DNA from: Corynebacterium rhinophilum
Lineage (GTDB): Bacteria > Actinomycetota > Actinomycetes > Mycobacteriales > Mycobacteriaceae
Assembly (NCBI RefSeq): GCF_030227225.1
Contig: NZ_JASPHQ010000005.1
Coordinates: 44,102-108,101 of the forward strand
Length of the DNA: 64,000 nucleotides
Direction of reading: 5' to 3'
Shown here: positions 13,736 to 25,932 of the stretch, piece by piece
Layout of the letters: the number at the start of each line of letters is the position of its first letter
Position numbering within the stretch: position 1 is the first letter of the stretch
The notes under the pieces: model-generated
Told to the model about the DNA's origin: nothing
Seen by the model: the letters and a program-made list of their open reading frames with translations, nothing else
The model's database searches: none
Position numbers and translations under genes: made by a program

Positions 13736-13770
13736 AGGACTAAGAGACTGTACTAGTCTTGCTTAGTCCT
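13736..13770 (-). terminator. Hairpin at the 3' end of ohr
   Basis: A strong inverted repeat: AGGACTAAG (13736-13744) pairs with CTTAGTCCT (13762-13770), with an inner AGACT/AGTCT stem. It covers the ohr stop codon. There is no T-tract, so termination is probable rather than certain. Confidence 0.5.
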
Positions 13771-14182
13771 GCGCGACGGTGACGTTGACGTCAATATTGC
13801 CGCGGGTGGCATTGGAGTAGGGGCAGACCTGGTGGGCGGCATCGGCAAGCTCTTGTGCCTTGTCGTGTTCCTGGGCGGGGATGATGACCTCGAGCTCAAC
13901 GGCGAGCTTGAAGCCTTCGCCCTCCTTGCCAATGGACACGCGGGCGCCCACGGAGGAATCGCCCAACTCAGTCTTCTCGCTGCGAGCTACCGCCTGCAGG
14001 GCAGAGTGGAAGCACGCGGCATAACCAGCGGCGAACAGCTGCTCTGGGTTGGCGCCGTTGCTATCGCCGCCCATTTCCTTCGGAGTGGCCATCTTGAAGT
14101 CAAGGTCAGAATTTTGCACTACGGCGCGGCCGTCGCGGCCTTCTCCGGTAGCGAGTGCTTCAGTGGCGTAAAGGGCGTCCAT
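13763..14182 (-). CDS. ohr: Organic hydroperoxide resistance protein (OsmC/Ohr family)
   Basis: 139 aa cytoplasmic thiol peroxidase that reduces organic hydroperoxides. The two redox cysteines lie in the usual places: AGYAACFHSAL near residue 57 and QVCPYSNATRGN near residue 120, the latter being the Ohr-type second motif. Length is typical. It is a single-gene unit between the leftward Wadjet operon and the rightward cas operon, with its own palindromic operator upstream. The regulator (OhrR-like) is not in the window. Confidence 0.93.
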   Translation of the reverse strand: MDALYATEALATGEGRDGRAVVQNSDLDFKMATPKEMGGDSNGANPEQLFAAGYAACFHSALQAVARSEKTELGDSSVGARVSIGKEGEGFKLAVELEVIIPAQEHDKAQELADAAHQVCPYSNATRGNIDVNVTVAQD

Positions 14183-14219
14183 GATTACTCCTTTTCTAAA
14201 GTCATTTTCGTACTAGTAG

Positions 14220-14244
14220 TGAGTACAGTCGCCGATTGTACTCA
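14220..14244. promoter_or_regulatory. Palindromic operator upstream of ohr
   Basis: Two perfect 8-bp arms, TGAGTACA (14220-14227) and TGTACTCA (14237-14244), flank a 9-bp spacer 38 bp upstream of the ohr start. The TACA/TGTA core is reminiscent of MarR-type OhrR sites, so a peroxide-sensing repressor is the likely ligand. Confidence 0.6.
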
Positions 14245-14442
14245 GAATTGCTAACGGTGTTTTTCCAGGTCAACGACCTAAGAAGTGAAAGGGTACGCTA
14301 GGACAAGGTGGAACGTCTCAAGTGTGCGCCGCAGGCCTACTCAACCCGTGCCGGAGGAGTGGGTGCTCCTTCCGGGGGAAGTACCTTGGGGCAGCGCTTG
14401 GATCGGCTGGTGTGCTCAATCCACCGCAAGGATGCAGGTAGA

Positions 14443-14530
14443 AAATAATCCCCGCTGACGCGGGGAACTAGTCAATTGACTATTCAAATGAGCACTAACA
14501 TGGGCTCATCCCAGTGCTAGCTGGGAGTTT
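14443..14530 (-). ncRNA. crRNA-like regulatory RNA (CreR/CreA type), pseudo-repeat/pseudo-spacer/pseudo-repeat
   Basis: Read on the minus strand, 14503-14530 aligns with the 28-nt CRISPR repeat at 19 of 28 positions. It keeps GGGATGAGCC (the crRNA 5' handle) exactly and preserves the stem through an A-T pair replacing a C-G pair. 14443-14470 aligns at 20 of 28 positions and keeps the full 7-bp TCCCCGC/GCGGGGA hairpin with loop GTCA, followed by ATTATTTTCT, so it could also terminate transcription. Between them is a 32-nt pseudo-spacer (14471-14502) whose first 12 nt equal 14600-14611 before cas3. Weak promoter boxes TTGCGA (14594-14599) and TAAAAT (14573-14578) would start it. Cas6e would be expected to process it. 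Inferred function: seed-only guidance of Cascade to the cas3 promoter. Confidence 0.78.
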
Positions 14531-14581
14531 GGCATTTCGCCTCCTGTAATCTTACCGCAAAAAGTGATGAAGATTTTAGGA

Positions 14582-14596
14582 CGATTTCAAAAATCG
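14582..14596. promoter_or_regulatory. Small palindrome between the divergent cas3 and crRNA-like promoters
   Basis: CGATTT-CAA-AAATCG is a perfect 6-bp inverted repeat placed next to the protospacer-like site. It could be an operator for a protein regulator of either promoter; no regulator gene is adjacent. Confidence 0.35.
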
Positions 14597-14599
14597 CAA

Positions 14600-14632
14600 C
14601 ATGTTAGTGCTAAACGTGGTATAGTCTTAAAT
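14600..14632 (+). promoter_or_regulatory. cas3 operon promoter overlapping a seed-matched protospacer
   Basis: The 12 nt at 14600-14611 (CATGTTAGTGCT) are identical to the start of the pseudo-spacer. A -10 box TATAGT follows at 14620-14625, inside the 32-33 nt a bound Cascade would cover. The bases before the match are CAA, or AAC if the first spacer base is counted as PAM-derived. In the main array the base after the 28-nt repeat is C in 11 of 15 units, which would suit AAC. The -35 region is weak. The cas3 ATG lies at 14699. Confidence 0.65.
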
Positions 14633-14698
14633 CATTAGTTAATAACTCCAGTTCACCATAAAAAGTGGACTAGGTGAGCCTGTAGTGGAGATAGAACC

Positions 14699-17479
14699 AT
14701 GAAATTGCCAGCGAAGACAGTGGATTTTTGTACTCGTGCAGATGGTTGGGCTGGTCAACGCAGCCAGCAGGCGCGGAGCTTGTGGGCGAAATCGGGTGAC
14801 GGTTTAGACCATCTCAACCTGCCACAACATATGGTTGATTCCGCATGTGCTGCATCCTTGGTGTATAACTCTTGGCTTTCTCGTTCAGTAAAGGAGTTCC
14901 TGAAAGCCGAGTTGCGTGTCTCAGAGACGGATATAGAAGTTCTCTACGTCTTTCTTGCTGGGGCCCATGATGTTGGAAAAGGTGTTAAGACTTTCCAGCG
15001 GCTTCTTCTTGACCGCAGTGACGTTGCGCATTTGGTCCACGCCGTTAGCGACGCGGGATTGGATATCGAATTGAGCGCCTCAGAGGCGAATATGTCCAAG
15101 CTTCCGCATGGTATTGCCTCTGGTGAAATTTTAGCAATCTGGCTTGAAGAACAGGGACTTACCCTGCCAAAGGCTAACTCTGTAGCCGCAGTTGTCAATG
15201 CTCATCATGGTGCCGCAAGCGGGCCGAATAAAGCGGTCCGAGAATTGATTCAAGATTACCCTTCGGCGTGGCGAATGGTTCATGGCGAACTTCTTGATGC
15301 CATGGCAAAACTTTGTGGGGAAAATGAGCTTGCGCAGGTCTTTGCCAAGCTGCCGAAAGTCTCGCCCGCAGCTGCCCAAATGCTTACCGGTTTAGTGGTT
15401 ATGGCGGACTGGATTGCTTCCAATGAAAAGGCTTTCGGCTTACGCGTGCAGGGAACTCAACTAGACCGAGTGGGACGGGCTGCGGAGCTCATTGACTTGA
15501 CCTCGCCTTGGGAACCGGAAACTCGATTGCATCAAGACATCGACGAGCAATTCCGGCAATCGTTTGGGTGGCCGGCCGAGTTTAAGGCGCGACAAGTACA
15601 GCAGAAAATGGTAGAGGCTGCCAGTGCGATCAATGAGCCAGCGCTCATAGTCCTAGAGGCTGAAACAGGCGTAGGAAAAACCGAAGCCGCCTTAGCAGCA
15701 GCGGAGGTGCTTGCGGCGAGAAGTGGAGCACAAGGAATCTTTATTGCCGCTCCGACCATGGCCACCGCGAATGGCCTGTTGCAAAGGACCATCGAATGGA
15801 GTCGAAACATAACGACAGATTCGGTTCGATCGATGTACCTCGCGCATTCCAAAAATGCATTGGCCAAGCCTTATACGGATTTAAAATTTACGGGAATCAA
15901 CCGTTACGAAGAAGAAGGCGGCAACGTTGTTGCATCGCAGTGGATGTCGGGACGGCGGCTCGGCATTCTTTCCAATTTCGTGGTGGGTACCGTTGACCAA
16001 GTGCTCATGATGGCGCTACAGCAGCGGTTTTCCATGCTGAGACATGTTGGCCTGGCAGGCAAAGTAGTAATTTTTGATGAGGTCCATTCCTTTGACGTTT
16101 ATTCTTCCGATTACCTCCGGAGTGCCATCGAATGGTTGGGATTTTATGGTGCCAGCGTCATCGTCATGTCCGCCACGTTGCCGGCGGACAAGCGGCGCGC
16201 ATTGGTCAGTGCGTACTCCGACGGTCAATGGCCAGAGGAAGAGCCGGCTGGCTACCCATTAATCACTGTGGCGACAGAAGACGAAATCCGTTCCCTAGAG
16301 GTCCCAGCGTCTCCAACAGACCTTGAAACTACCATCAATTTCCTGGCGGAAGGCGAAGATTCATTGCACGAACTTCTCAAGGAATGGCTCGTGGATGGAG
16401 GGTGCGTTCTTATTATTTGCAATACTATCGCACGAGCTCAGGCAGCGTATTCGGAACTCTCCGAAAGCTATGGTGATTGCGTGGAGCTTCATCACGCGGG
16501 ATTTGTGGCTTGGGAACGTGTAGAAAAAGAGGATTCGTTACGGCGCCACCTTGGCCCGGATACACACAGGGGAGCAGGCCGGCCGAAGCAAAAAATTGTG
16601 GTGGCCACTCAAGTGGCGGAGCAAAGCTTGGATATTGATGCCGACGCTCTGATTACTGATATCGCACCTATGGATTTGCTTATTCAGCGCATTGGGAGGC
16701 TGCACCGCCACGCGCGTCCTTCCAGCGATCGACCCGAAAAACTGCGCGAGCCCAAGGTTGTTATTCGCGGGATAGAAACTTCCTCAACAGTTCCGGAATT
16801 TGAATCAGGTGCCGAGGCCATTTACGGCCGTGCGATATTGCTATCAACCTATGCCGTCTTGCCAAATAAGATTCGCCGTCCAGATGACATCGCTCCGCTT
16901 GTAGCAGCTGCATATGATCGCAACTTTAAGCCGCCAGAGGCGTGGAACGAATCATGGGAAGAGGCCATTGCGACGCGTGATTTTGAGGAATCGACAGCGC
17001 ATTCAGCGTCCTCAACGTTCCGATTGCCGGATCCGTGGAGTACCAATGGCCTGGACGCTCTATTTGCACGGCTGCAGGATGATTCCGCAGACGATGCCGA
17101 GATTAAAGGCGCAGCTCAAGTCCGTGACGCAGAGCCCAGTGTTGAGGTGATCCCCATCATCGAGACTGATTACGGCTATCGCCCGTGGGGTTGGGATGAA
17201 GAGGTCATAGAGGCTGCCGATATTCCGTATAGGCTGGCCTTTCATCTTGCGTCTAGTACAGTGCGGCTACCTGTGCGAATGACCCGCTATGACTGGGACT
17301 TCAACGCGGTGGTTGATGATCTCGAAGGGGCAACACCGGCCGAGTGGGGTTCACATTATTTACTGCGGGGACAACTGGCATTGCCGCTAAATGAAAAGGG
17401 AGAGACGCAGGTAGGACGCTTTGTTTTGCAGTATACGAGCCAGCTGGGAATCGAAATTATGAGTGATGGACGTGAGTGA
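14699..17479 (+). CDS. cas3: CRISPR-associated helicase-nuclease Cas3 (type I-E)
   Basis: 926 aa effector that unwinds and degrades DNA marked by Cascade. The N-terminal HD nuclease is visible as AHDVGKG near residue 90 and HHGAASG near residue 168. The helicase has Walker A ETGVGKTEAA near residue 322, IFDEVHSFD (motif II), MSATLP (motif III) and QRIGRLHRHAR (motif VI). All key residues are present, so interference looks functional. ATG 14699 has GTGGAGA upstream. The gene is 98 bp from casA, with a possible translational switch in the gap. GC is lower than in the core genes nearby, suggesting acquisition. Confidence 0.97.
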   Translation: MKLPAKTVDFCTRADGWAGQRSQQARSLWAKSGDGLDHLNLPQHMVDSACAASLVYNSWLSRSVKEFLKAELRVSETDIEVLYVFLAGAHDVGKGVKTFQRLLLDRSDVAHLVHAVSDAGLDIELSASEANMSKLPHGIASGEILAIWLEEQGLTLPKANSVAAVVNAHHGAASGPNKAVRELIQDYPSAWRMVHGELLDAMAKLCGENELAQVFAKLPKVSPAAAQMLTGLVVMADWIASNEKAFGLRVQGTQLDRVGRAAELIDLTSPWEPETRLHQDIDEQFRQSFGWPAEFKARQVQQKMVEAASAINEPALIVLEAETGVGKTEAALAAAEVLAARSGAQGIFIAAPTMATANGLLQRTIEWSRNITTDSVRSMYLAHSKNALAKPYTDLKFTGINRYEEEGGNVVASQWMSGRRLGILSNFVVGTVDQVLMMALQQRFSMLRHVGLAGKVVIFDEVHSFDVYSSDYLRSAIEWLGFYGASVIVMSATLPADKRRALVSAYSDGQWPEEEPAGYPLITVATEDEIRSLEVPASPTDLETTINFLAEGEDSLHELLKEWLVDGGCVLIICNTIARAQAAYSELSESYGDCVELHHAGFVAWERVEKEDSLRRHLGPDTHRGAGRPKQKIVVATQVAEQSLDIDADALITDIAPMDLLIQRIGRLHRHARPSSDRPEKLREPKVVIRGIETSSTVPEFESGAEAIYGRAILLSTYAVLPNKIRRPDDIAPLVAAAYDRNFKPPEAWNESWEEAIATRDFEESTAHSASSTFRLPDPWSTNGLDALFARLQDDSADDAEIKGAAQVRDAEPSVEVIPIIETDYGYRPWGWDEEVIEAADIPYRLAFHLASSTVRLPVRMTRYDWDFNAVVDDLEGATPAEWGSHYLLRGQLALPLNEKGETQVGRFVLQYTSQLGIEIMSDGRE

Positions 17480-17577: not shown

Positions 17578-19323
17578 ATGACTGATACAGAAACTTTTAA
17601 CCTGCTCGATGAGCCATGGATTTTGTGCATGGACAGTGCGGATAATCGCAAAGCGTTGAGCATCCGGGACATATTTTCTGGACAGGGTGATGCCCACAAA
17701 ATTGTGGGCGATTCACCGACCCAGGATTATGCGGTCATAAGACTGTTATTGGCTATATTTTGGCGCGCTCATGCGCAAGAATTAGCAGAAGCAGCAGGCG
17801 GAAGGCGGAAACGTTCCAGCTTTGATTGGGGCGAATGGTTCGCGGAAAAGCGTGAAGAATTAAGCGAGACGAAGCGGGACCAAGTTGTTTTAGATTATCT
17901 TGATGCCTTTAGAGACCGATTCGACTTACTCTCTGACACTGTTCCTTTCATGCAGGTGGCGGATCTTCACTCGCAGAAAAATGAGACTCGACCGATTTCC
18001 TATATAGTTCCAGAAGCCGCTGATGATCATTTCACGATGCGCACGGCTGAGGGTCGGCGGGCGATCCCTCTAGATGAGGCTGCCCGATGGCTACTTCACC
18101 TGCAGGCTTATGATTATTCCGGTATTAAAACCGGCGCAGTAGGAGACCCTCGTGTAAAGGGTGGTCGAGGTTATCCCATCGGCACAGGTTGGACTGGTCG
18201 AACGGGCGGAACTTTAGTACTTGGTACTGAAGGCCTCTTAGAAACACTTTTGTTAAATACTCCTATGGCAGCTGTTATGACGGAGCAGGGAACTAACCCA
18301 ATTGAGCTGGATAAACCGGTATGGGAAAGAGAACCCGATACTGCTGCGCAGCGCCGTGGATCAGATGACAAGCTTGGTGCTGTGCCCCAAGGCGCGGCTG
18401 ATTTGGCGACTTGGCAGGCACGACGAGTGCGCCTAGTAGCTGAAGAAGGCCAGATTACTCGCGTCCTCGTATCGAATGGTGATCGCATTCCGGATGCGGG
18501 AAAGAATGTCATGAATGATCCTATGACGCCGTATCGGTATAGCCCCAACCAGTCGAAGGCCGGCCAAGATGCTTACTACGCGCGTCCATATGATTCCACT
18601 CAGACCATGTGGCGTGCACTTGATGCGTTGGTTGCCGTCGAAGACGACCCAGGCTTTGACCAGAAGAAGGTAAAAGCTCCGAAGCGACCAGCCAATCTCA
18701 GCAATCTCGCTGCGCTTGACGTTGATGGATACCTAAACCAAGGCGCCTTTGATATTGCTTTGGTTTCGATGGAATACGGACCACAGGAATCTTCAGTAGC
18801 CACTACTTTCAGCACCACGATCGGGCTTCCCCTAGTGGTATTGCGCGAAGATGATCTTGGCAGGCAAGCGCGTAACGCTGTCCGCACTGCCGCCCAAAAG
18901 ACCTATGAAACAGCCGTGAGCTTGGGCTGGTTTGAAGGTCAACTGCAGGTAGCCGCGGGCGATGATTATGAATTCGGCGTTAAGTCTAAGGACAGGTTTT
19001 ACGCCCAGTTAGAGCCGGAGTTTATTGCGTGGATGCAGACCATTTCTGCTGAAAATGCAGACAGCGCTCAGATCAACTGGCAGGAACGAGTTCGATCAGT
19101 AGCTGTCTCCCACGCAATGGAACTGCTGCGCGGCGCCGGGATGAAGGCGATTATCGGCAGGGAAGTAGACGCAGGAGAAGACGGAAGGGGTCGAATTGTC
19201 TCAGCTGGATCCCTTTTTCAGCAGCTACAGCGGCGTTTTGATAAGAACCTGCCGTTAACAGGCAAGTCCACACGAAATCAGAATCCTAGCTCACCTATGA
19301 AGGAAGGTGTTGCCCATGCATGA
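17578..19323 (+). CDS. casA: Cascade large subunit Cas8e (Cse1/CasA)
   Basis: 581 aa. The large subunit recognises the PAM and recruits Cas3. The N-terminus FNLLDEPWI and the segment QDYAVIRLLLAIFWRA near residue 50 are typical of Cse1. A Gly-rich part around residue 200 (GGRGYPIGTGWTGRTGG) is the loop-bearing region of this family. The C-terminal helical part contains SHAMELLRGAGM. Length is somewhat above the E. coli protein and ordinary for actinobacteria. Strong ribosome site AAAGGAGG 9 nt before ATG. Overlaps casB by 8 nt. Confidence 0.93.
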   Translation: MTDTETFNLLDEPWILCMDSADNRKALSIRDIFSGQGDAHKIVGDSPTQDYAVIRLLLAIFWRAHAQELAEAAGGRRKRSSFDWGEWFAEKREELSETKRDQVVLDYLDAFRDRFDLLSDTVPFMQVADLHSQKNETRPISYIVPEAADDHFTMRTAEGRRAIPLDEAARWLLHLQAYDYSGIKTGAVGDPRVKGGRGYPIGTGWTGRTGGTLVLGTEGLLETLLLNTPMAAVMTEQGTNPIELDKPVWEREPDTAAQRRGSDDKLGAVPQGAADLATWQARRVRLVAEEGQITRVLVSNGDRIPDAGKNVMNDPMTPYRYSPNQSKAGQDAYYARPYDSTQTMWRALDALVAVEDDPGFDQKKVKAPKRPANLSNLAALDVDGYLNQGAFDIALVSMEYGPQESSVATTFSTTIGLPLVVLREDDLGRQARNAVRTAAQKTYETAVSLGWFEGQLQVAAGDDYEFGVKSKDRFYAQLEPEFIAWMQTISAENADSAQINWQERVRSVAVSHAMELLRGAGMKAIIGREVDAGEDGRGRIVSAGSLFQQLQRRFDKNLPLTGKSTRNQNPSSPMKEGVAHA

Positions 19324-19987
19324 CACCAGTCATCCGCAGGCAGAAACTGCTGCGGAGTACACAGGCCCGCGTTTGCGAACCTCCGTGGCGCGTACCGCAG
19401 AGGCGCTGCAGAATGATTATTTGCATTCGCCACAACACAATAAACAAGCGCGAGCACGTGCAGTCCTAGCCCAATTGCGTAAGTATTCTGCGGTACGTCT
19501 TGAACAACATCCCGTGGCACTTGAAGAGGTCCTCCTTTTATTGGAGCCTGCATTGAGTGAACAAGAGATGGGAAAGGGCGCCGCACCATCTGCATCAGAG
19601 CTCGCGGCCTTTCAAGCCATGACGATGCTAGGTATCCATCTACAAAGCGCTAGCACTGAAGCACATATTAAAGGCCAAAGCTTCGCACGGGCCTGCGGTC
19701 GTTTCTATGCGCACAGTCAGTCACAATCCACGAAACCGCGTTTTGATGCGATGCTCGTATCTTCCGATGAGGCTTCCCGCCTCATACATATTCGTTCCTT
19801 GGTAACGCTATTGCGCGGGGAAGATTTGGGGTTTGACTACGGTGCATTTGCACAGGACCTGCGGGTTCTAGGCAGCAAAAGCACTACTCAAAAAGCGCAT
19901 ACGCAACGACAAGGCGTGCTATTGAAATGGGCACGTGACTTCGCATTCGGTTCTTATGCGTCCGCCCAGAACCAACCGACTTCTTAA
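19316..19987 (+). CDS. casB: Cascade small subunit Cse2 (CasB)
   Basis: 223 aa. Cse2 dimerises along the Cascade belly and stabilises the R-loop. The protein is helical with conserved basic patches (RARAVLAQLRKYS near residue 45, SFARACGRFYAHSQS near residue 120) and ends in a helix with LLKWARDFAFG. I prefer ATG 19316 with AGGAAGG 8 nt upstream; a GTG at 19307 would add three residues. It starts within the casA stop region, indicating coupling. Confidence 0.9.
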   Translation: MHDTSHPQAETAAEYTGPRLRTSVARTAEALQNDYLHSPQHNKQARARAVLAQLRKYSAVRLEQHPVALEEVLLLLEPALSEQEMGKGAAPSASELAAFQAMTMLGIHLQSASTEAHIKGQSFARACGRFYAHSQSQSTKPRFDAMLVSSDEASRLIHIRSLVTLLRGEDLGFDYGAFAQDLRVLGSKSTTQKAHTQRQGVLLKWARDFAFGSYASAQNQPTS

Positions 19988-20022
19988 AATCAATTCTCAC
20001 ATTCTAGAAAGGAATTTTCGCA

Positions 20023-21165
20023 ATGGCTTTGACCATCGATATTCACGCTCTGCAGACTCTTCCGCCTTCTCTGATCAACCGTGATGACACCGGGGCGCCT
20101 AAGTCTGCCGTTTATGGCGGCGTGCCACGTCAGCGAGTCTCTTCGCAGGCATGGAAGCGTGCAATCCGCAAGTACTTTGAATCTGAAATCGATGCTGAAT
20201 CTGTGGGGGACCGCTCGAAGCGGCTTCCAGAGAAGATCGCGCGTAAGGTTCAAGAACACGAGGGCTGGGATGCAGAGCGAGCTCAAAAGGAAGTTGCTGA
20301 GCTTTTCAAAGCTGCAGGAATTAAGACGGAAGTGGACGCGAAGCGTATCAAGGCGCTGAAAGATTCCGAGGAAACCACCGAAGAAGAACTAGCAGCAGCG
20401 CAGTATCCGCAGACCAAATACTTGTTGTTCTTGAGCCCACACCAGATTGAACGTGCCGCGGAGGCGATTATTGCGGCCGACGGTGAAAAGATTAAGAAGA
20501 AGGATGCCCTGGAGATCCTTGATACCCAGCACTCGGTAGATATGGCGTTGTTTGGGCGCATGGTTGCCGATGATGCTGCTTATAACGTCGATGCCGCAGT
20601 ACAGGTTGCGCATGCACTGGGAATTCATGCCAGCGCGCCTGAATTCGACTATTTCACCGCGGTCGATGACTTGGCCGAGGAAGGCGAAGAAACTGGTGCA
20701 GGCATGATTGGCACTGTACAAATGATGTCGTCAACCTTGTACCGCTATGCCACGGTGAACCTGGATGGATTGACGCAAAATCTTGACTCGGCAGAAAACG
20801 CAAAGCAAGCCGCAGTGAACTTCGTTGATGCATTCATCAAGTCCATGCCCACGGGCAAAATCAATACCTTTGCCAACCAAACAATGCCTGAGCTCATCTA
20901 TATTGCGGTTCGCGATACTCGCCCGGTTAGCCTGGTTACTGCCTTCGAAGAACCAGTAGAGCCGACCACCGGTCAGAGCTTGCGCGTCGCCGGTGCCGAA
21001 GCATTGGCGAAAGAAGAAACCGAGTTTGAAGAAAACTATGGGCTGCAGCCTAAGGCAGCCTTTGTGGTTGGGTTGAGCGAGGCCCGTCAGGCATTCGCAC
21101 ACATCGCTGAAGAAGTGACACTGCCAGAGCTTTCGCAGCGGTTGTCTTCCGCGCTTTCGGAGTAG
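20023..21165 (+). CDS. casC: Cascade backbone Cas7e (Cse4/CasC)
   Basis: 380 aa. Six copies wrap the crRNA in type I-E Cascade. The N-terminus shows the family's LPPSLINRDDTGAPKSA and GGVPRQRVSSQAWKRAIR (RNA-binding). The middle has HSVDMALFGRMVADD and the C-terminus NTFANQTMPELIYIAVRDTRP. Complete; ATG 20023 with AAAGGA upstream. Separated from casB by 35 bp and from casD by 13 bp, in one operon. Confidence 0.95.
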   Translation: MALTIDIHALQTLPPSLINRDDTGAPKSAVYGGVPRQRVSSQAWKRAIRKYFESEIDAESVGDRSKRLPEKIARKVQEHEGWDAERAQKEVAELFKAAGIKTEVDAKRIKALKDSEETTEEELAAAQYPQTKYLLFLSPHQIERAAEAIIAADGEKIKKKDALEILDTQHSVDMALFGRMVADDAAYNVDAAVQVAHALGIHASAPEFDYFTAVDDLAEEGEETGAGMIGTVQMMSSTLYRYATVNLDGLTQNLDSAENAKQAAVNFVDAFIKSMPTGKINTFANQTMPELIYIAVRDTRPVSLVTAFEEPVEPTTGQSLRVAGAEALAKEETEFEENYGLQPKAAFVVGLSEARQAFAHIAEEVTLPELSQRLSSALSE

Positions 21166-21178
21166 GAGGCTTAAAACT

Positions 21179-21895
21179 ATGACAGCATCATTGTTGTTGC
21201 TGCTTAAAGGGCCGATGCAGTCTTGGGGTACGGAATCTCGCTACGCTACGCGTGCAACTTCGTCTTTGCCCTCGAAGTCAGGAGTTCTTGGCATGCTAGC
21301 CGCGGCTGAAGGACGCAGGCGTGATGAAGATATGGCCGATTTGGCGGGCCTCAAGTTCGCGGTGCGTGTTGACCAATCCGGTAGCCTTTTGCGCGATTAT
21401 CAAACCGCGCAAAACTGGCAAAAGGATCCACAGGCTTCCGCAAAGCTCATCACCCGCTATTTCCTATCAGATGCCGCATTCGTTGCGGCAATCGAAAGTG
21501 AGGATCGCGAGCAACTCGAGAATTTTGCGGAGAACCTAAACCGACCAGTATTTCCGCTCTATTTGGGCCGACGTTCGTGCCCGGCTCCGCCCAATGTGGT
21601 GCTTGGTGTGGTTGAAAAGCCTGCGGTTACGGCATTACAAGAGCACGACACGTGGCACGCCACCAAGGAGTATATGAAATCAAGTGGTGGGGAAGTACCG
21701 CTGCCGATTTACCGGGACTCCCTCCCAGGAGAATCCGGCGTGGCTTGCCAGGATGTACCGAAGTCTTTTGATCCGCAGCACCGGAAGTATTCATGGCGCA
21801 CCGTAGTGCAAAAGGAATTTGCGAATGTAGAAAACCCCTTAGATAGCGATGAGCGGCGCCCAGATTCGTTTTTGGAGGCGGTGATGAATGTATGA
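21179..21895 (+). CDS. casD: Cascade subunit Cas5e (CasD)
   Basis: 238 aa RAMP protein that caps the 5' handle of the crRNA. The signature start LLLLLKGPMQSWGTESR and the following SLPSKSGVLGMLAAAEGRRR are characteristic of Cas5e. YLGRRSCPAPP in the middle is also typical. Stop overlaps casE start (ATGA). No defect is visible. Because Cas5e holds the 5' handle, its ligand should be the GATGAGCC-type end kept in both the array and the pseudo-repeat before cas3. Confidence 0.94.
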   Translation: MTASLLLLLKGPMQSWGTESRYATRATSSLPSKSGVLGMLAAAEGRRRDEDMADLAGLKFAVRVDQSGSLLRDYQTAQNWQKDPQASAKLITRYFLSDAAFVAAIESEDREQLENFAENLNRPVFPLYLGRRSCPAPPNVVLGVVEKPAVTALQEHDTWHATKEYMKSSGGEVPLPIYRDSLPGESGVACQDVPKSFDPQHRKYSWRTVVQKEFANVENPLDSDERRPDSFLEAVMNV

Positions 21896-22590
21896 GTACG
21901 TTAACCAAAATTCTTATCAATCCTCAGCGGCGTCAAGGGCGAAAGCTACTCGCCAATCCACAAGCAATGCACGCGGCGGTCGCCGCATCATTTCCACCGG
22001 ATGTGGATCAAGAGTCTGGGCGTATTCTATGGCGCCTTGATGAAGGTGCGCATCACCATTCTCTCTACGTAGTGGGGCCTGAAAAACCGACTGACCATGT
22101 GATTGTGGAACAAGCAGGGTGGGATACAAGGCCGGGACAATCGGTTGAGTATGACCGGCTGCTTAATTCCCTTACTAAGGGGCAAAGATGGATCTTTGAG
22201 CTGGTAGCCAACCCAACGTATTCGCAGGCTAATGAAGGCAAGCGAGGCAAAGTGAAGGCTCACGTGTCCGTGGAACACCAGCTGGAGTGGTTGTATCGTC
22301 GAGCAGAAAATGCCGGATTTGAACTAGCCCCCCGGGAAGGTGATGATGTCAGTGACGATGAGCGTTCTCGGTGGTCCGTGGAAGAAGAAACCGCGATTAT
22401 TGAGCGAAAAACGTTGGATTTCCGGAAAGGAAATGGCAATAGGCGTGTGCGTATCGCCACAGCCCGATACCGCGGAACCTTGGAGGTCAAAGATTCTGAG
22501 GCTCTTCGGCACACCCTTACTCATGGGATAGGAAGAGCTCGTGGTTATGGTTGTGGCTTAATGACTCTAGCTCGGCCGATGGGGTCTTGA
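21892..22590 (+). CDS. casE: CRISPR RNA endonuclease Cas6e (CasE)
   Basis: 232 aa. Cas6e cuts pre-crRNA at the base of the repeat hairpin. The glycine-rich C-terminal loop LTHGIGRARGYGCGLM is the family hallmark, and the N-terminus LTKILINPQRRQGRKLL with the following HAAVAASFP fits. A His near residue 25 may act in catalysis, as in other Cas6e. It would also be the predicted processor of the crRNA-like RNA before cas3 and of repeat-bearing transcripts downstream of the array. Confidence 0.93.
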   Translation: MSTLTKILINPQRRQGRKLLANPQAMHAAVAASFPPDVDQESGRILWRLDEGAHHHSLYVVGPEKPTDHVIVEQAGWDTRPGQSVEYDRLLNSLTKGQRWIFELVANPTYSQANEGKRGKVKAHVSVEHQLEWLYRRAENAGFELAPREGDDVSDDERSRWSVEEETAIIERKTLDFRKGNGNRRVRIATARYRGTLEVKDSEALRHTLTHGIGRARGYGCGLMTLARPMGS

Positions 22591-23528
22591 TGTCTAATCC
22601 GAGCGAAGTCCCTGTCACCCGCCAAGCTTTGTCCCGGATGGGAGACCGAATCAGTTTCTTGTACGCCGAGCGCTGCGTGATCAATAGGGATGGTAATTCA
22701 CTAACGATAACGGACCAGCGCGGCGTCGCACATGTGCCAGCCACACAATTGGCGGCACTGTTGCTTGGTCCAGGAACGAGGATTACTTACGCGGGCATGG
22801 CTTTGCTTGGCGATGCCGGGGTTACCACCCTCTGGGTAGGTGAGCGCGGCGTTCGGTACTATGCGCACGGTCGGCCACCAGCGAAATCGTCCCGTATGGC
22901 TGAAATTCATGCGCAGGTAGTTTCTCACCAGCGGAAGCGTTTGGACGTGGCTCGCAGAATGTATGCCATGCGGTTTCCAGGAGAAGACGTTTCTCAGCTG
23001 ACGATGTCCCAGCTGCGTGGCCGCGAAGGTGCACGCATGAAGCGGATTTATGCTGCTGAAGCCGAGCGTACTGGAGTCTATTGGAATCGGAGGTCTTATG
23101 ATCCCAATGATTTCGATTCTTCTGACCCAATTAACCAGGCTCTGACTGCGGGCAGCGCCGCGCTATATGGAGTTGCTCATGCTGTCGTTGCAGCGCTCGG
23201 CTTCATCCCTGCTTTGGGGATAGTACATACAGGCACCGATAGGTCATTCGTCTACGACATTGCTGACCTTTACAAAGCAGAGGTTTCTATTCCAGCGGCA
23301 TTTGATGCTGTCGCAGCACAACAGGGTAATCCCTCTGTGGAAGTTCGTCGTTTCGTGCGGGATCAAGTTGTCTCACGCCGCCTCATGCCGCGAATGGTCC
23401 AAGATCTTAAGGCACTTTTTGATATTCCAGATGACGAGCTCGTAAGTGATGCCGAGCTAATGCTGTGGAGTGAACTTGAAGTGATCGCTTCGGGTCTTAA
23501 CTGGGCAGAAGAGGAGACGCTGTCATGA
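22590..23528 (+). CDS. cas1: Spacer integrase Cas1e
   Basis: 312 aa from ATG 22590 (TGATG overlap with casE). Cas1 is the integrase of the Cas1-Cas2 adaptation complex. Seen: the N-terminal beta domain (RISFLYAERCVINRDG), GARMKRIYAAEAERTGV in the helical domain, and metal-site segments GIVHTGTDRSF (His) and YDIADLYKAE (Asp). The gene appears intact. Its stop overlaps the cas2 start (ATGA), but its partner is broken, so adaptation may be lost. Confidence 0.95.
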   Translation: MSNPSEVPVTRQALSRMGDRISFLYAERCVINRDGNSLTITDQRGVAHVPATQLAALLLGPGTRITYAGMALLGDAGVTTLWVGERGVRYYAHGRPPAKSSRMAEIHAQVVSHQRKRLDVARRMYAMRFPGEDVSQLTMSQLRGREGARMKRIYAAEAERTGVYWNRRSYDPNDFDSSDPINQALTAGSAALYGVAHAVVAALGFIPALGIVHTGTDRSFVYDIADLYKAEVSIPAAFDAVAAQQGNPSVEVRRFVRDQVVSRRLMPRMVQDLKALFDIPDDELVSDAELMLWSELEVIASGLNWAEEETLS

Positions 23529-23881
23529 TGGTGCTGGTTATTACTGCTTGTCCCGCTGGACTACGCGGCGATCTGTCCAAGTGGCTCATAGAGCTGACTC
23601 CCGGTGTGTTCGTCGGACGTCCCTCTGCTCGTATACGAGATTTGCTCTGGGAACGTACAACCGAGCTTTGTAAAGATGGCCGCGCACTTTTGGTGTAGTC
23701 AGCCGCGAATGAGCAGGGAATGGAGTTCAAGGCTCACCGACATCATTGGGAACCTACGGATTTTGACGGGATTACCTTGATGACGCGACCGGCTAAGTCT
23801 AAGCAACCACAGCGAAGGACTGGATGGTCTCAAGCCCGACGTAACCGTATTTCTTATAAGAAACAGAAGGGAGGATATTAG
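23525..23881 (+). pseudogene. cas2: cas2e interrupted by an amber codon
   Basis: Starting at ATG 23525 the frame reads as Cas2e (VITACPAGLRGDLSKWL, then GVFVGRPSARIRDLLWER and CKDGRALLV) for 57 codons. It then meets TAG at 23696-23698, where the family normally has an aromatic Tyr before a S/T-rich turn and NEQ. After the TAG the same frame continues in register (SAANEQG, HHWEPTDFDGITLM, a basic tail) to TAG at 23879-23881, giving 118 codons in all. A single base change thus appears to have killed the gene. Readthrough, or a sequencing error, is the alternative. Confidence 0.88.
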
Positions 23882-23970: not shown

Positions 23971-24915
23971 GTGCTCCCCGCGTGAGCGGGGATGAGCCGC
24001 CCACCCCGGTAGAGCAGGAAGCTGAAAAACCGTGCTCCCCGCGTGAGCGGGGATGAGCCGTTCGACCGCGTCGAACACGTCCTTGACAGGGTGTGCTCCC
24101 CGCGTGAGCGGGGATGAGCCCTAAACGCGTACATCAACCTGCACAACTCTTCTGTGCTCCCCGCGTGAGCGGGGATGATCCCCAACTCATCTCCCTGGAG
24201 CGGTCCGTGCCGTTGTGCTCCCCGCGTGAGCGGGGATGAGCCCCACGGCGGCGACATCGAGGGGACACTGCTTGAAGTGCTCCCCGCGTGAGCGGGGATG
24301 AGCCGATGGAATCGCCGTTCTGGTCCAGGAAGATGGGGTGCTCCCCGCGTGAGCGGGGATGAGCCCCCAGTCTAAGAGCTTACGAGTCTTCTCGGGCAGT
24401 GCTCCCCGCGTGAGCGGGGATGAGCCCCACGGCGGCGACATCGAGGGGACACTGCTTGAAGTGCTCCCCGCGTGAGCGGGGATGAGCCCGTTGTCACGAA
24501 TCCAACCCCACACAGCAGAAAGTGCTCCCCGCGTGAGCGGGGATGAGCCCCTTCCTGCCGAGCATTACACGTTAGACCAAATGTGCTCCCCGCGTGAGCG
24601 GGGATGAGCCCTCGCATCATGGAGAGTGCTGCAGACCATGCCCGTGCTCCCCGCGTGAGCGGGGATGAGCCCAAGAAAGCCGTCTGCAATGACCGCGCTA
24701 CCCTGTGCTCCCCGCGTGAGCGGGGATGAGCCCTGAGCGACAAACCCCGTCAGCGTGTCCAGCTCGTGCTCCCCGCGTGAGCGGGGATGAGCCCCATCCG
24801 GTCGGAGCAACCGGCATCACGGGCTGGTGCTCCCCGCGTGGGCGGGGATGAGCCTCTTACCGCTCGCAATCTTGCCCACTGACAGCAGTACTCTCCGCTT
24901 GAGCGGGGAGGCCGC
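23971..24915 (+). CRISPR. Type I-E CRISPR array, 15 repeats plus a degenerate terminal repeat
   Basis: The 28-nt repeat begins GTGCTCCCCGCG and ends CGGGGATGAGCC, with a TCCCCGC/GCGGGGA hairpin. Repeats start at 23971, 24032, 24093, 24154, 24215, 24277, 24338, 24399, 24461, 24522, 24583, 24644, 24705, 24766 and 24827; a decayed one is at 24888. Spacers are 33 nt, except two identical 34-nt spacers (24243-24276 and 24427-24460). The repeat at 24154 ends GATGATCC and the one at 24827 has GTGGGC in its loop. Orientation follows the leader at the left. Open frames across the array on the minus strand are artefacts. Confidence 0.99.
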
Positions 24916-24942
24916 CCTCAAAGTACAGAAAGGAATCAAAAG

Positions 24943-25092
24943 ATGACAATCGTCGTCGCGCTTATCAGCGCATCATTCATCATCACTAAAGCACCAGCAT
25001 GGGCTACTACCACTGCGCTAGTAGCCATGACCGTTTGCTTAGCTCTGGACACCCGCGAGCAATGGCTAGAAAGAAAAAATCATGCAGCTTAA
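24943..25092 (+). CDS. Small membrane protein A, downstream of the array
   Basis: 49 aa from ATG 24943 with AGAAAGGAATC upstream. Two hydrophobic segments (residues about 3-15 and 18-33) are followed by a charged tail LDTREQWLERKN. The start lies 27 nt after the degenerate terminal CRISPR repeat. Protein B and a decayed third copy downstream share the pattern W...(C)L..DTR..W(L)..K. Function unknown; candidates are a membrane-acting toxin-like peptide or a small envelope protein. Not recognised from any family. Confidence 0.6.
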   Translation: MTIVVALISASFIITKAPAWATTTALVAMTVCLALDTREQWLERKNHAA

Positions 25093-25118
25093 AATCATTG
25101 GCGCAGGCACAGAGAAAG

Positions 25119-25146
25119 CTGCTCCTCGCATGAGCACGGACGAGCC
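25119..25146 (+). repeat. Degenerate CRISPR repeat between small ORFs A and B
   Basis: The 28 nt match the array repeat at about 22 positions (TGCTCC, TGAGC and GAGCC kept; the stem is partly disrupted). It lies 24 nt before the start of small protein B, repeating the arrangement before protein A. Confidence 0.7.
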
Positions 25147-25170
25147 TACCAACCCTCGAAAGGACTTATC

Positions 25171-25338
25171 ATGGACATCATGTCTAAAATTTCAAGCGCA
25201 CTAATAGTGATCGCCGTGCTTATCGCGCTTACTCTAGGGGATACCCCAATATTCTGGGTAGTCATGTCCCTCACTGCGGTTACACTCACAGTTGAGACCG
25301 TCCAGCTCGTACAGAAGTGGCGGAAAAATGCAGTCTAG
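25171..25338 (+). CDS. Small membrane protein B, downstream of the array
   Basis: 55 aa from ATG 25171 with AAAGGAC upstream. It has two hydrophobic segments separated by LGDTPIFW and a basic tail QLVQKWRKNAV. It resembles protein A in size, two-segment topology and the TP/AP-x-W and Q-W/K-N-A positions of the tail, so a tandem duplication with divergence is likely. It is bracketed by degenerate CRISPR repeats at 25119 and 25370. Function unknown. Confidence 0.6.
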   Translation: MDIMSKISSALIVIAVLIALTLGDTPIFWVVMSLTAVTLTVETVQLVQKWRKNAV

Positions 25339-25369
25339 AATCGTTGACGTAGACACTGGCGATGAATGT

Positions 25370-25458
25370 GCGCTCTCCGCGTGAGCGGGGATGAACCCAC
25401 TACTTTTGGCGACGCCGACTTTGGCTGGTTGTGCTCCCCGCGTGAGCGGGGATTAATT
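25370..25458 (+). CRISPR. Secondary mini-array: two repeats, one spacer
   Basis: A repeat at 25370-25397 (ending GATGAACC) and one at 25431-25458 (ending GATTAATT) are exactly 61 nt apart and flank a 33-nt spacer (25398-25430). The right-hand copy has the eroded 3' end expected of a terminal repeat. It is on the same strand as the main array, about 455 bp past its end. Confidence 0.85.
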
Positions 25459-25849: not shown

Positions 25850-25923
25850 GGGGCTATAGCTCAGTCGGTTAGAGCTCCGGACTCATAATCCGTCGGTCCC
25901 GGGTTCGAGCCCCGGTGGCCCCA
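25850..25923 (+). tRNA. tRNA with CAT anticodon (Met, or Ile2 if lysidine-modified)
   Basis: Cloverleaf with acceptor GGGGCTA/TGGCCCC, AGCTCAGTCGGTTAGAGC D-arm, anticodon loop CTCATAA and T-arm GGGTTCGAGCCC. D-arm and acceptor argue for an elongator rather than the initiator. Elongator Met and Ile2 cannot be separated with certainty by eye. It ends the defence island. Confidence 0.9.
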
Positions 25924-25932
25924 CGGTAGAAG

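What the first reader, a model, noticed from the sequence alone, without database searches (positions are those of the whole stretch)
14443..14611. CreR/CreA-like crRNA mimic aimed at the cas3 promoter
Seen: on the minus strand two degenerate CRISPR repeats (14503-14530 and 14443-14470) with a 60-nt period, against 61 nt in the array 9.5 kb away. The 5' copy keeps the crRNA handle and a compensatory A-T pair in its stem; the 3' copy keeps a perfect 7-bp repeat hairpin and is followed by a T-rich stretch. The 32-nt pseudo-spacer starts, exactly at the repeat boundary, with 12 nt identical to 14600-14611, next to the cas3 -10 box TATAGT, and the identity stops there. Known: crRNA-like regulators (CreA, CreR) pair only through the seed, so Cascade binds and represses but does not trigger cleavage. 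Inferred: an RNA-guided autorepression switch for a type I-E system, transcribed divergently from cas3. I do not know of such an element described in Corynebacterium.
Basis: partly seen in the sequence, partly recalled or inferred. Interest (0 to 1): 0.95.

Follow-up and report, generated by a model that had tools for sequence, protein, structure and literature searches.

The report
CRISPR guide aimed at own promoter
Beside its CRISPR defence genes this Corynebacterium carries a tiny decayed CRISPR unit whose guide sequence matches the promoter of those same genes, and close relatives keep that match through paired changes; the unit likely makes a guide RNA that would let the defence complex turn down its own production, a kind of self-control already reported from other microbes.

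Summary
A lone, degenerate two-repeat mini-CRISPR (minus strand, 14443-14530) lies between ohr and the type I-E cas3. Its guide's first 12 nt match 14600-14611 next to an AAC PAM at the cas3 promoter, the only such site in the 2.47-Mb genome.

Of 92 cas3 loci of the genus, 65 have such a unit by a rule blind to the target. In 57 of 92 its seed (spacer positions 1-5, 7-11) matches an AA-flanked site near cas3 at 9 or 10 of 10. Controls: 12 of 5090 cross-species tests, 11 of 4103 array spacers. Mismatches gather at positions 6 and 12, those shown to be dispensable in CreA. In near relatives guide and target change together.

Unexpectedly, guide length is quantised: 23 of 57 are full length (31-32 nt), 34 are 12-13 nt shorter, none between; the tree needs about seven switches.

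Best reading: a CreR-type autorepressor guide, a known kind. Transcription, processing and repression are untested. The window's own guide is of the full-length class.

The parts
14503..14530 (-). 5' degenerate repeat copy with intact handle end (GGGATGAGCC)
   Evidence: 19 of 28 identical to array repeat; hairpin predicted
14471..14502 (-). Pseudo-spacer (nt 29 at 14502; spacer positions 1-31 at 14501-14471); seed 1-11 = 14501-14491
   Evidence: one nt shorter than array spacers
14443..14470 (-). 3' degenerate repeat copy: hairpin kept, handle lost
   Evidence: 20 of 28 identical; 7-bp stem
14439..14466 (-). Hairpin plus T-rich tail, predicted terminator of the guide RNA
   Evidence: Only terminator-like site in 14380-14720
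14549..14554 (-). Predicted -10-like element (TAAGAT) of the guide RNA gene
   Evidence: By eye; conserved in five of five close species; not found by the strict scan
14598..14600 (+). PAM AAC of the target
   Evidence: AA in 50 of 53 unique pairs chosen without PAM
14600..14611 (+). Target matching the guide (12 nt; seed positions 1-11 at 14601-14611)
   Evidence: Only site in the genome
14620..14625 (+). Predicted cas3 -10 box TATAGT, inside the stretch a 31-nt guide would cover
   Evidence: By eye; TATAGT in four of five close species
14699..17479 (+). cas3, first gene of the presumed regulated operon
17578..22590 (+). cse1, cse2, cas7, cas5, cas6: Cascade, the presumed effector
23971..24915 (+). 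Main CRISPR array, period 61

Best explanation
The mini-CRISPR at 14443-14530 matches the cas3 promoter next to a PAM and likely encodes a CreR-type guide RNA that is predicted to lead Cascade to that promoter, where it would repress the cas operon without triggering Cas3. Inferred course: a minus-strand RNA of roughly 100 nt is transcribed away from cas3; Cas6 would cut at the handle and at the 3' hairpin; the guide would assemble with Cse1, Cse2, Cas7, Cas5 and Cas6; the complex would open an R-loop of about 11 base pairs from the AAC PAM and cover the -10 region. When ordinary crRNAs or anti-CRISPR proteins draw Cascade away, the operon would be released. Shown by sequence: the anatomy, the unique match, the PAM, the co-variation and the recurrence in the genus. 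Not shown: the RNA, the complex and the repression.
For: Unique target in the genome. Paired changes at spacer positions 2 and 5 in close relatives. Mini-CRISPR in 65 of 92 genus loci by a rule blind to the target; seed match at 9 or 10 of 10 next to AA in 57 of 92 loci, or 57 of 69 guides, against 12 of 5090 cross-species tests, 7 of 3450 shuffles and 11 of 4103 array spacers. With equal weights and no PAM filter (53 unique pairs): AA in 50; mismatches at position 6 in 32 of 53 against 18 of 530 at the other ten; at position 12 in 42 of 53 against 7 of 106 at 11 and 13. The same ten positions were needed, and 6 and 12 dispensable, for CreA (PMC8501985 section 15). PAM fits the published AC for Corynebacterium I-E (PMC8482600 passage). 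Guides of the same kind in other genera of the class: 6 of 188 at 10/10 against 0 of 5264 cross-tests.
Against: No RNA or expression data. 35 of 92 loci do not meet the combined rule: 27 lack the structural unit and 8 have one with a weaker match. The strict promoter scan found nothing. 21 of 60 guides have under 5 bp of stem in the 5' copy, so Cas6 cutting there is uncertain. A T-rich tail behind the 3' hairpin is not general (6 or more T in 10 nt in 19 of 61). Activation instead of repression is not excluded by sequence.
Confidence: 0.85

Rival explanations
1. A decayed remnant of an array or of a self-acquired spacer, without function; the match would be what is left of a spacer taken from the cas3 promoter.
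For: Both repeats are degenerate. Other decayed repeats lie behind the main array.
Against: Decay does not keep ten paired positions and free 6 and 12, nor change guide and target together, nor hold two discrete guide lengths.
Confidence: 0.05
2. A Cascade guide at the cas3 promoter whose main effect is not repression but activation or promotion of spacer uptake (priming) at the cas locus.
For: Partial matches can prime in type I systems (established knowledge). Effect direction is not readable from sequence.
Against: In Haloarcula I-B priming is lost at spacers of 24 nt or less while repression stays (PMC10989794 passages), and 34 of 57 guides here are about 20 nt. The window's cas2 has an in-frame stop.
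Confidence: 0.06
3. A toxin-antitoxin (CreTA or CrePA type): the guide silences a small toxin gene, and the cas3 promoter is only nearby.
For: CreA guides look alike and use the same seed positions (PMC8501985).
Against: The single genomic target is 99 nt before cas3. Small toxins in the leader between 14612 and 14698 were not specifically searched.
Confidence: 0.03
4. An ordinary small RNA that pairs with cas3 mRNA.
For: A structured RNA is predicted (z -3.3).
Against: The guide has the same sense as the mRNA strand in 53 of 57 loci, so it cannot pair with that mRNA; PAM and the 6/12 pattern are marks of Cascade on DNA. No Rfam family matches 14100-14800.
Confidence: 0.01

Closest known systems
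CreR, cas-regulating RNAs of types I-B, I-E and V-A (Liu et al. 2023, doi 10.1016/j.chom.2023.08.005; not held, known here from passages of PMC13131331, PMC12737573, PMC12948488)
   Same: Mini-CRISPR beside the cas operon whose guide has limited complementarity to the cas promoter; autorepression through the effector is reported for type I-E.
   Different: Function untested here. In most positive loci of this genus (34 of 57) the guide is 12-13 nt short; I could not see whether that paper reports this or any Corynebacterium.
CreA of CreTA, haloarchaeal type I-B (PMC8501985)
   Same: Degenerate repeats, PAM, pairing at 1-5 and 7-11 with 6 and 12 free.
   Different: CreA silences a toxin gene; here the target is the cas3 promoter. 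Type I-E, not I-B.
Laboratory short-spacer crRNAs (Haloarcula I-B, PMC10989794 passages; type I-F1, PMC7296934 abstract)
   Same: Short guides bind or repress, with interference lost.
   Different: Designed guides; the roughly 20-nt guides of this genus are natural, and the window's own guide is not short.

Membership tests
CreR | crRNA-like gene with repeat analogues, apart from the main array and near cas genes | tested here: met
   14443-14530, 9.5 kb from the array; 65 of 92 loci
CreR | Limited seed complementarity to the cas promoter | tested here: met
CreR | PAM beside the target | tested here: met
   AAC; AA in 50 of 53 pairs; published AC
CreR | Not coupled to a toxin gene | tested here: inconclusive
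   No other target in the genome; small ORFs beside it were not screened for toxins
CreR | Guide RNA made, processed by Cas6 and loaded into Cascade | not testable with these tools
   Hairpins predicted only
CreR | Represses cas transcription without cleavage | not testable with these tools
   None
CreTA (CreA guide) | Guide targets the promoter of a toxin gene | tested here: not met
   The single genomic target lies 99 nt before cas3
Immunity spacer of a CRISPR array | Near-identical repeats and full-length match to foreign DNA | tested here: not met
   Repeats 19 and 20 of 28; match to self stops after the seed; no similar sequence in the phage and plasmid collections

The most novel reading that the evidence does not exclude
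Corynebacterium autorepressor guides come in two discrete sizes, about 32 and about 20 nt, two Cas7 steps (12 nt) apart, and lineages have switched between them repeatedly (about seven changes on the Cas3 tree). The short guides would build a natural small Cascade with four Cas7 subunits, a dedicated repressor that binds DNA but cannot license Cas3, so that guide length itself tells the complex to silence rather than to cut.
Probability: 0.55. Interest if true: 0.8.

Novelty: new member of a known kind. Interest (0 to 1): 0.66.

Why it matters
If true, RNA-guided self-control of cas genes is common in a whole genus of actinobacteria; a 2025 review of actinomycete CRISPR still asks whether their CRISPR-Cas systems have regulatory roles (PMC12231136 passages). 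Dozens of natural guide/target pairs give an evolutionary readout of Cascade's rules: PAM, free positions 6 and 12, seed of 11. The two quantised guide lengths make it directly testable whether a natural short guide makes a binding-only Cascade.

Tried and rejected
Remnant array, mRNA-pairing small RNA, toxin-antitoxin and priming readings were weighed and set aside (see rivals). Rfam over 14100-14800: no match. Mobile copies of the element: no match in phages or plasmids, and none in viral contigs for a pattern that covers only this clade's seed. Array spacers as alternative regulators: no excess of promoter matches (11 of 4103 at 9 or more). Relaxed scan of the 37 loci outside the strict set: 8 printed a hit; four of these (G150, G027, G076, G169) are already among the 57; G077 is a further good case (10/10) not counted; hits in G007, G185 and G207 look like chance; the other 29 gave nothing. 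One search used a threshold (10 of 14) that lets chance pairs in, so (11 of 14) replaced it; still holds one false guide (G010, length class -24) and three pairs without AA. The offset scan peaked at the repeat boundary (42 of 69 guides) but also gave 8 and 11 at offsets -12 and -11 and 3 to 6 at 19 to 23, which I take to be repeat palindromes that my filter left in. One search stopped on an error and was rerun. Structure prediction was not used.

What is in print was judged from listings, which cover open-licence papers only, and from passages or named sections; no paper was read whole. The primary CreR paper is not held, nor is the E. coli short-spacer paper (only its title was seen).

Full report
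What is there. Between ohr (13763-14182, minus) and the type I-E operon that starts with cas3 (14699, plus) lies a two-repeat mini-CRISPR on the minus strand. The 5' copy (14503-14530) keeps the handle GGGATGAGCC; the 3' copy (14443-14470) keeps the hairpin but not the handle, and a T-rich tail makes it terminator-like. The guide begins CATGTTAGTGCT, and the same 12 nt stand at 14600-14611 behind GCAA, 99 nt before the cas3 start codon. In the usual I-E register the PAM is AAC (14598-14600) and the paired seed is positions 1-11 (14601-14611). This is the only AANATGTTNGTGCT in the 2.47-Mb genome. Among 55 handle-like sites in the window only this one has a perfect seed site next to AA.

Near relatives. 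Five genomes, this one included, have Cas3 at 93-100% identity. Their two repeats are conserved, and the guide/target pairs read CATGTTAGTGCT (this genome), CACGTCAGTGCT (G001 and G144), CATGTCAGTGCT (G151) and, in C. macginleyi (G102), guide CATGTTAGTGCT against target CATGTTTGTGCT, which differs at position 6 only (alone had G001 and G102 on the wrong strand). Positions 2 and 5 have changed in both places together.

Genus. Of 242 genomes searched, 113 had a Cas3-like hit; 92 loci were taken. A rule blind to the target (handle at least 9 of 11, identity at least 12 of 28, then a hairpin) found 69 guides in 65 of the 92 loci. Scored on spacer positions 1-5 and 7-11 next to AA, from 450 nt upstream to 60 nt inside cas3, 42 of 69 guides match 10/10 and 57 of 69 at least 9/10. 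Nulls at 9 or more: 12 of 5090 cross-species, 7 of 3450 shuffled, 11 of 4103 array spacers. By distinct seeds, 46 of 58 reach 9 or more. These 57 guides stand for 57 loci, one each. Because the scoring positions were chosen with Cascade in mind, a second test used 14 positions of equal weight and no PAM: 53 unique pairs, AA in 50, AAC in 42. Mismatches: position 6, 32 of 53, against 18 of 530 at the other ten; position 12, 42 of 53, against 7 of 106 at 11 and 13. Matches fade from position 14 on (40, 29, 25 and 11 of 53 at 14 to 17). In CreA the same ten positions were shown by mutation to be required and 6 and 12 to be free (PMC8501985 section 15). The PAM fits the published AC motif for Corynebacterium I-E (PMC8482600 passage).

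Arrangement. Of the 57 loci, 50 have the guide on minus and the target on plus, 3 both on plus, and 4 the guide on plus and the target on minus. In three loci whose array handle is GATGTTCC (G083, G235, G005) the mini-CRISPR carries GATGTTCC too; in G038 and G125 its handle differs from the array's by one base. On the Cas3 tree, presence or absence changes 17 times and the strand arrangement twice.

Guide length. Measured from handle to 3' hairpin, the 57 loci fall at 0 (11), -1 (12), -12 (31) and -13 (3) relative to array spacers, with nothing between. Of 4291 neighbouring array units 4103 have period 61, and three have 49 or 50. On a FastTree tree of 87 Cas3 proteins, 54 of them labelled, the length class needs seven changes, six of them forced by well-supported branches (the tool warns of long branches). 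Six nt per Cas7 is established knowledge of Cascade (recalled), so -12 would mean two fewer Cas7. In Haloarcula I-B, spacers of 30 nt or less lose interference, 24 or less lose priming, and 20 to 24 still repress (PMC10989794 passages). In type I-F1, truncated R-loops form but do not trigger Cas2/3, while the authors call cleavage less length-restricted in type I-E (PMC7296934 abstract); that last point speaks against length alone being the switch here. The window's own guide is of the full class (-1).

Beyond the genus. In 29 Cas3 loci from other genera of the class, 6 of 188 handle-like guides have a 10/10 seed site next to AA in their own upstream region and 3 more reach 9, in 9 of 29 loci; cross-tests gave 0 of 5264 at 10 and 20 at 9. 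The guides include ordinary array units, and the scan used generic repeats.

Reading. The unit works like CreR: a guide that pairs through its seed with the cas promoter. Membership is met on anatomy, match and PAM; processing, loading and repression are untested. CreR is reported for type I-E in general (PMC13131331 passage), so this is a new member; the quantised short class elsewhere in the genus would be a variant that I did not see in the passages and listings I had.

Limits. No expression data; promoters read by eye; 35 of 92 loci do not meet the combined rule (27 without a unit, 8 with a weaker match); the 5' hairpin has under 5 bp in 21 of 60 guides; related genomes are not independent, which the distinct-seed count only partly corrects.

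Noticed in passing
23525-23881: The cas2 frame is interrupted by an in-frame stop (codon 58); the frame is open in G001, G144 and G151. Spacer uptake may be broken in this strain while Cascade genes look whole.
   Followed up: partly
24888-25458: Behind the main array, decayed repeats (24888, 25119, 25370, 25431) alternate with two short hydrophobic ORFs (24943-25092, 49 aa; 25171-25338, 55 aa). The last copy ends GGGGATTAATTTTCTTT, much like the 3' copy of the mini-CRISPR. No 10/10 target next to AA for these guides in the window; the first 700 nt are 90% conserved in G001.
   Followed up: partly
24215-24304 and 24399-24488: The main array holds one spacer twice, with identical flanks.
   Followed up: no
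14606 and the same position in other loci: The target base at the unpaired position 6 is A in 34 of 47 plus-strand targets, although the guide need not match it; a promoter element may lie under the seed.
   Followed up: no
25850-25924: tRNA-Met (CAT) directly behind the CRISPR region.
   Followed up: no
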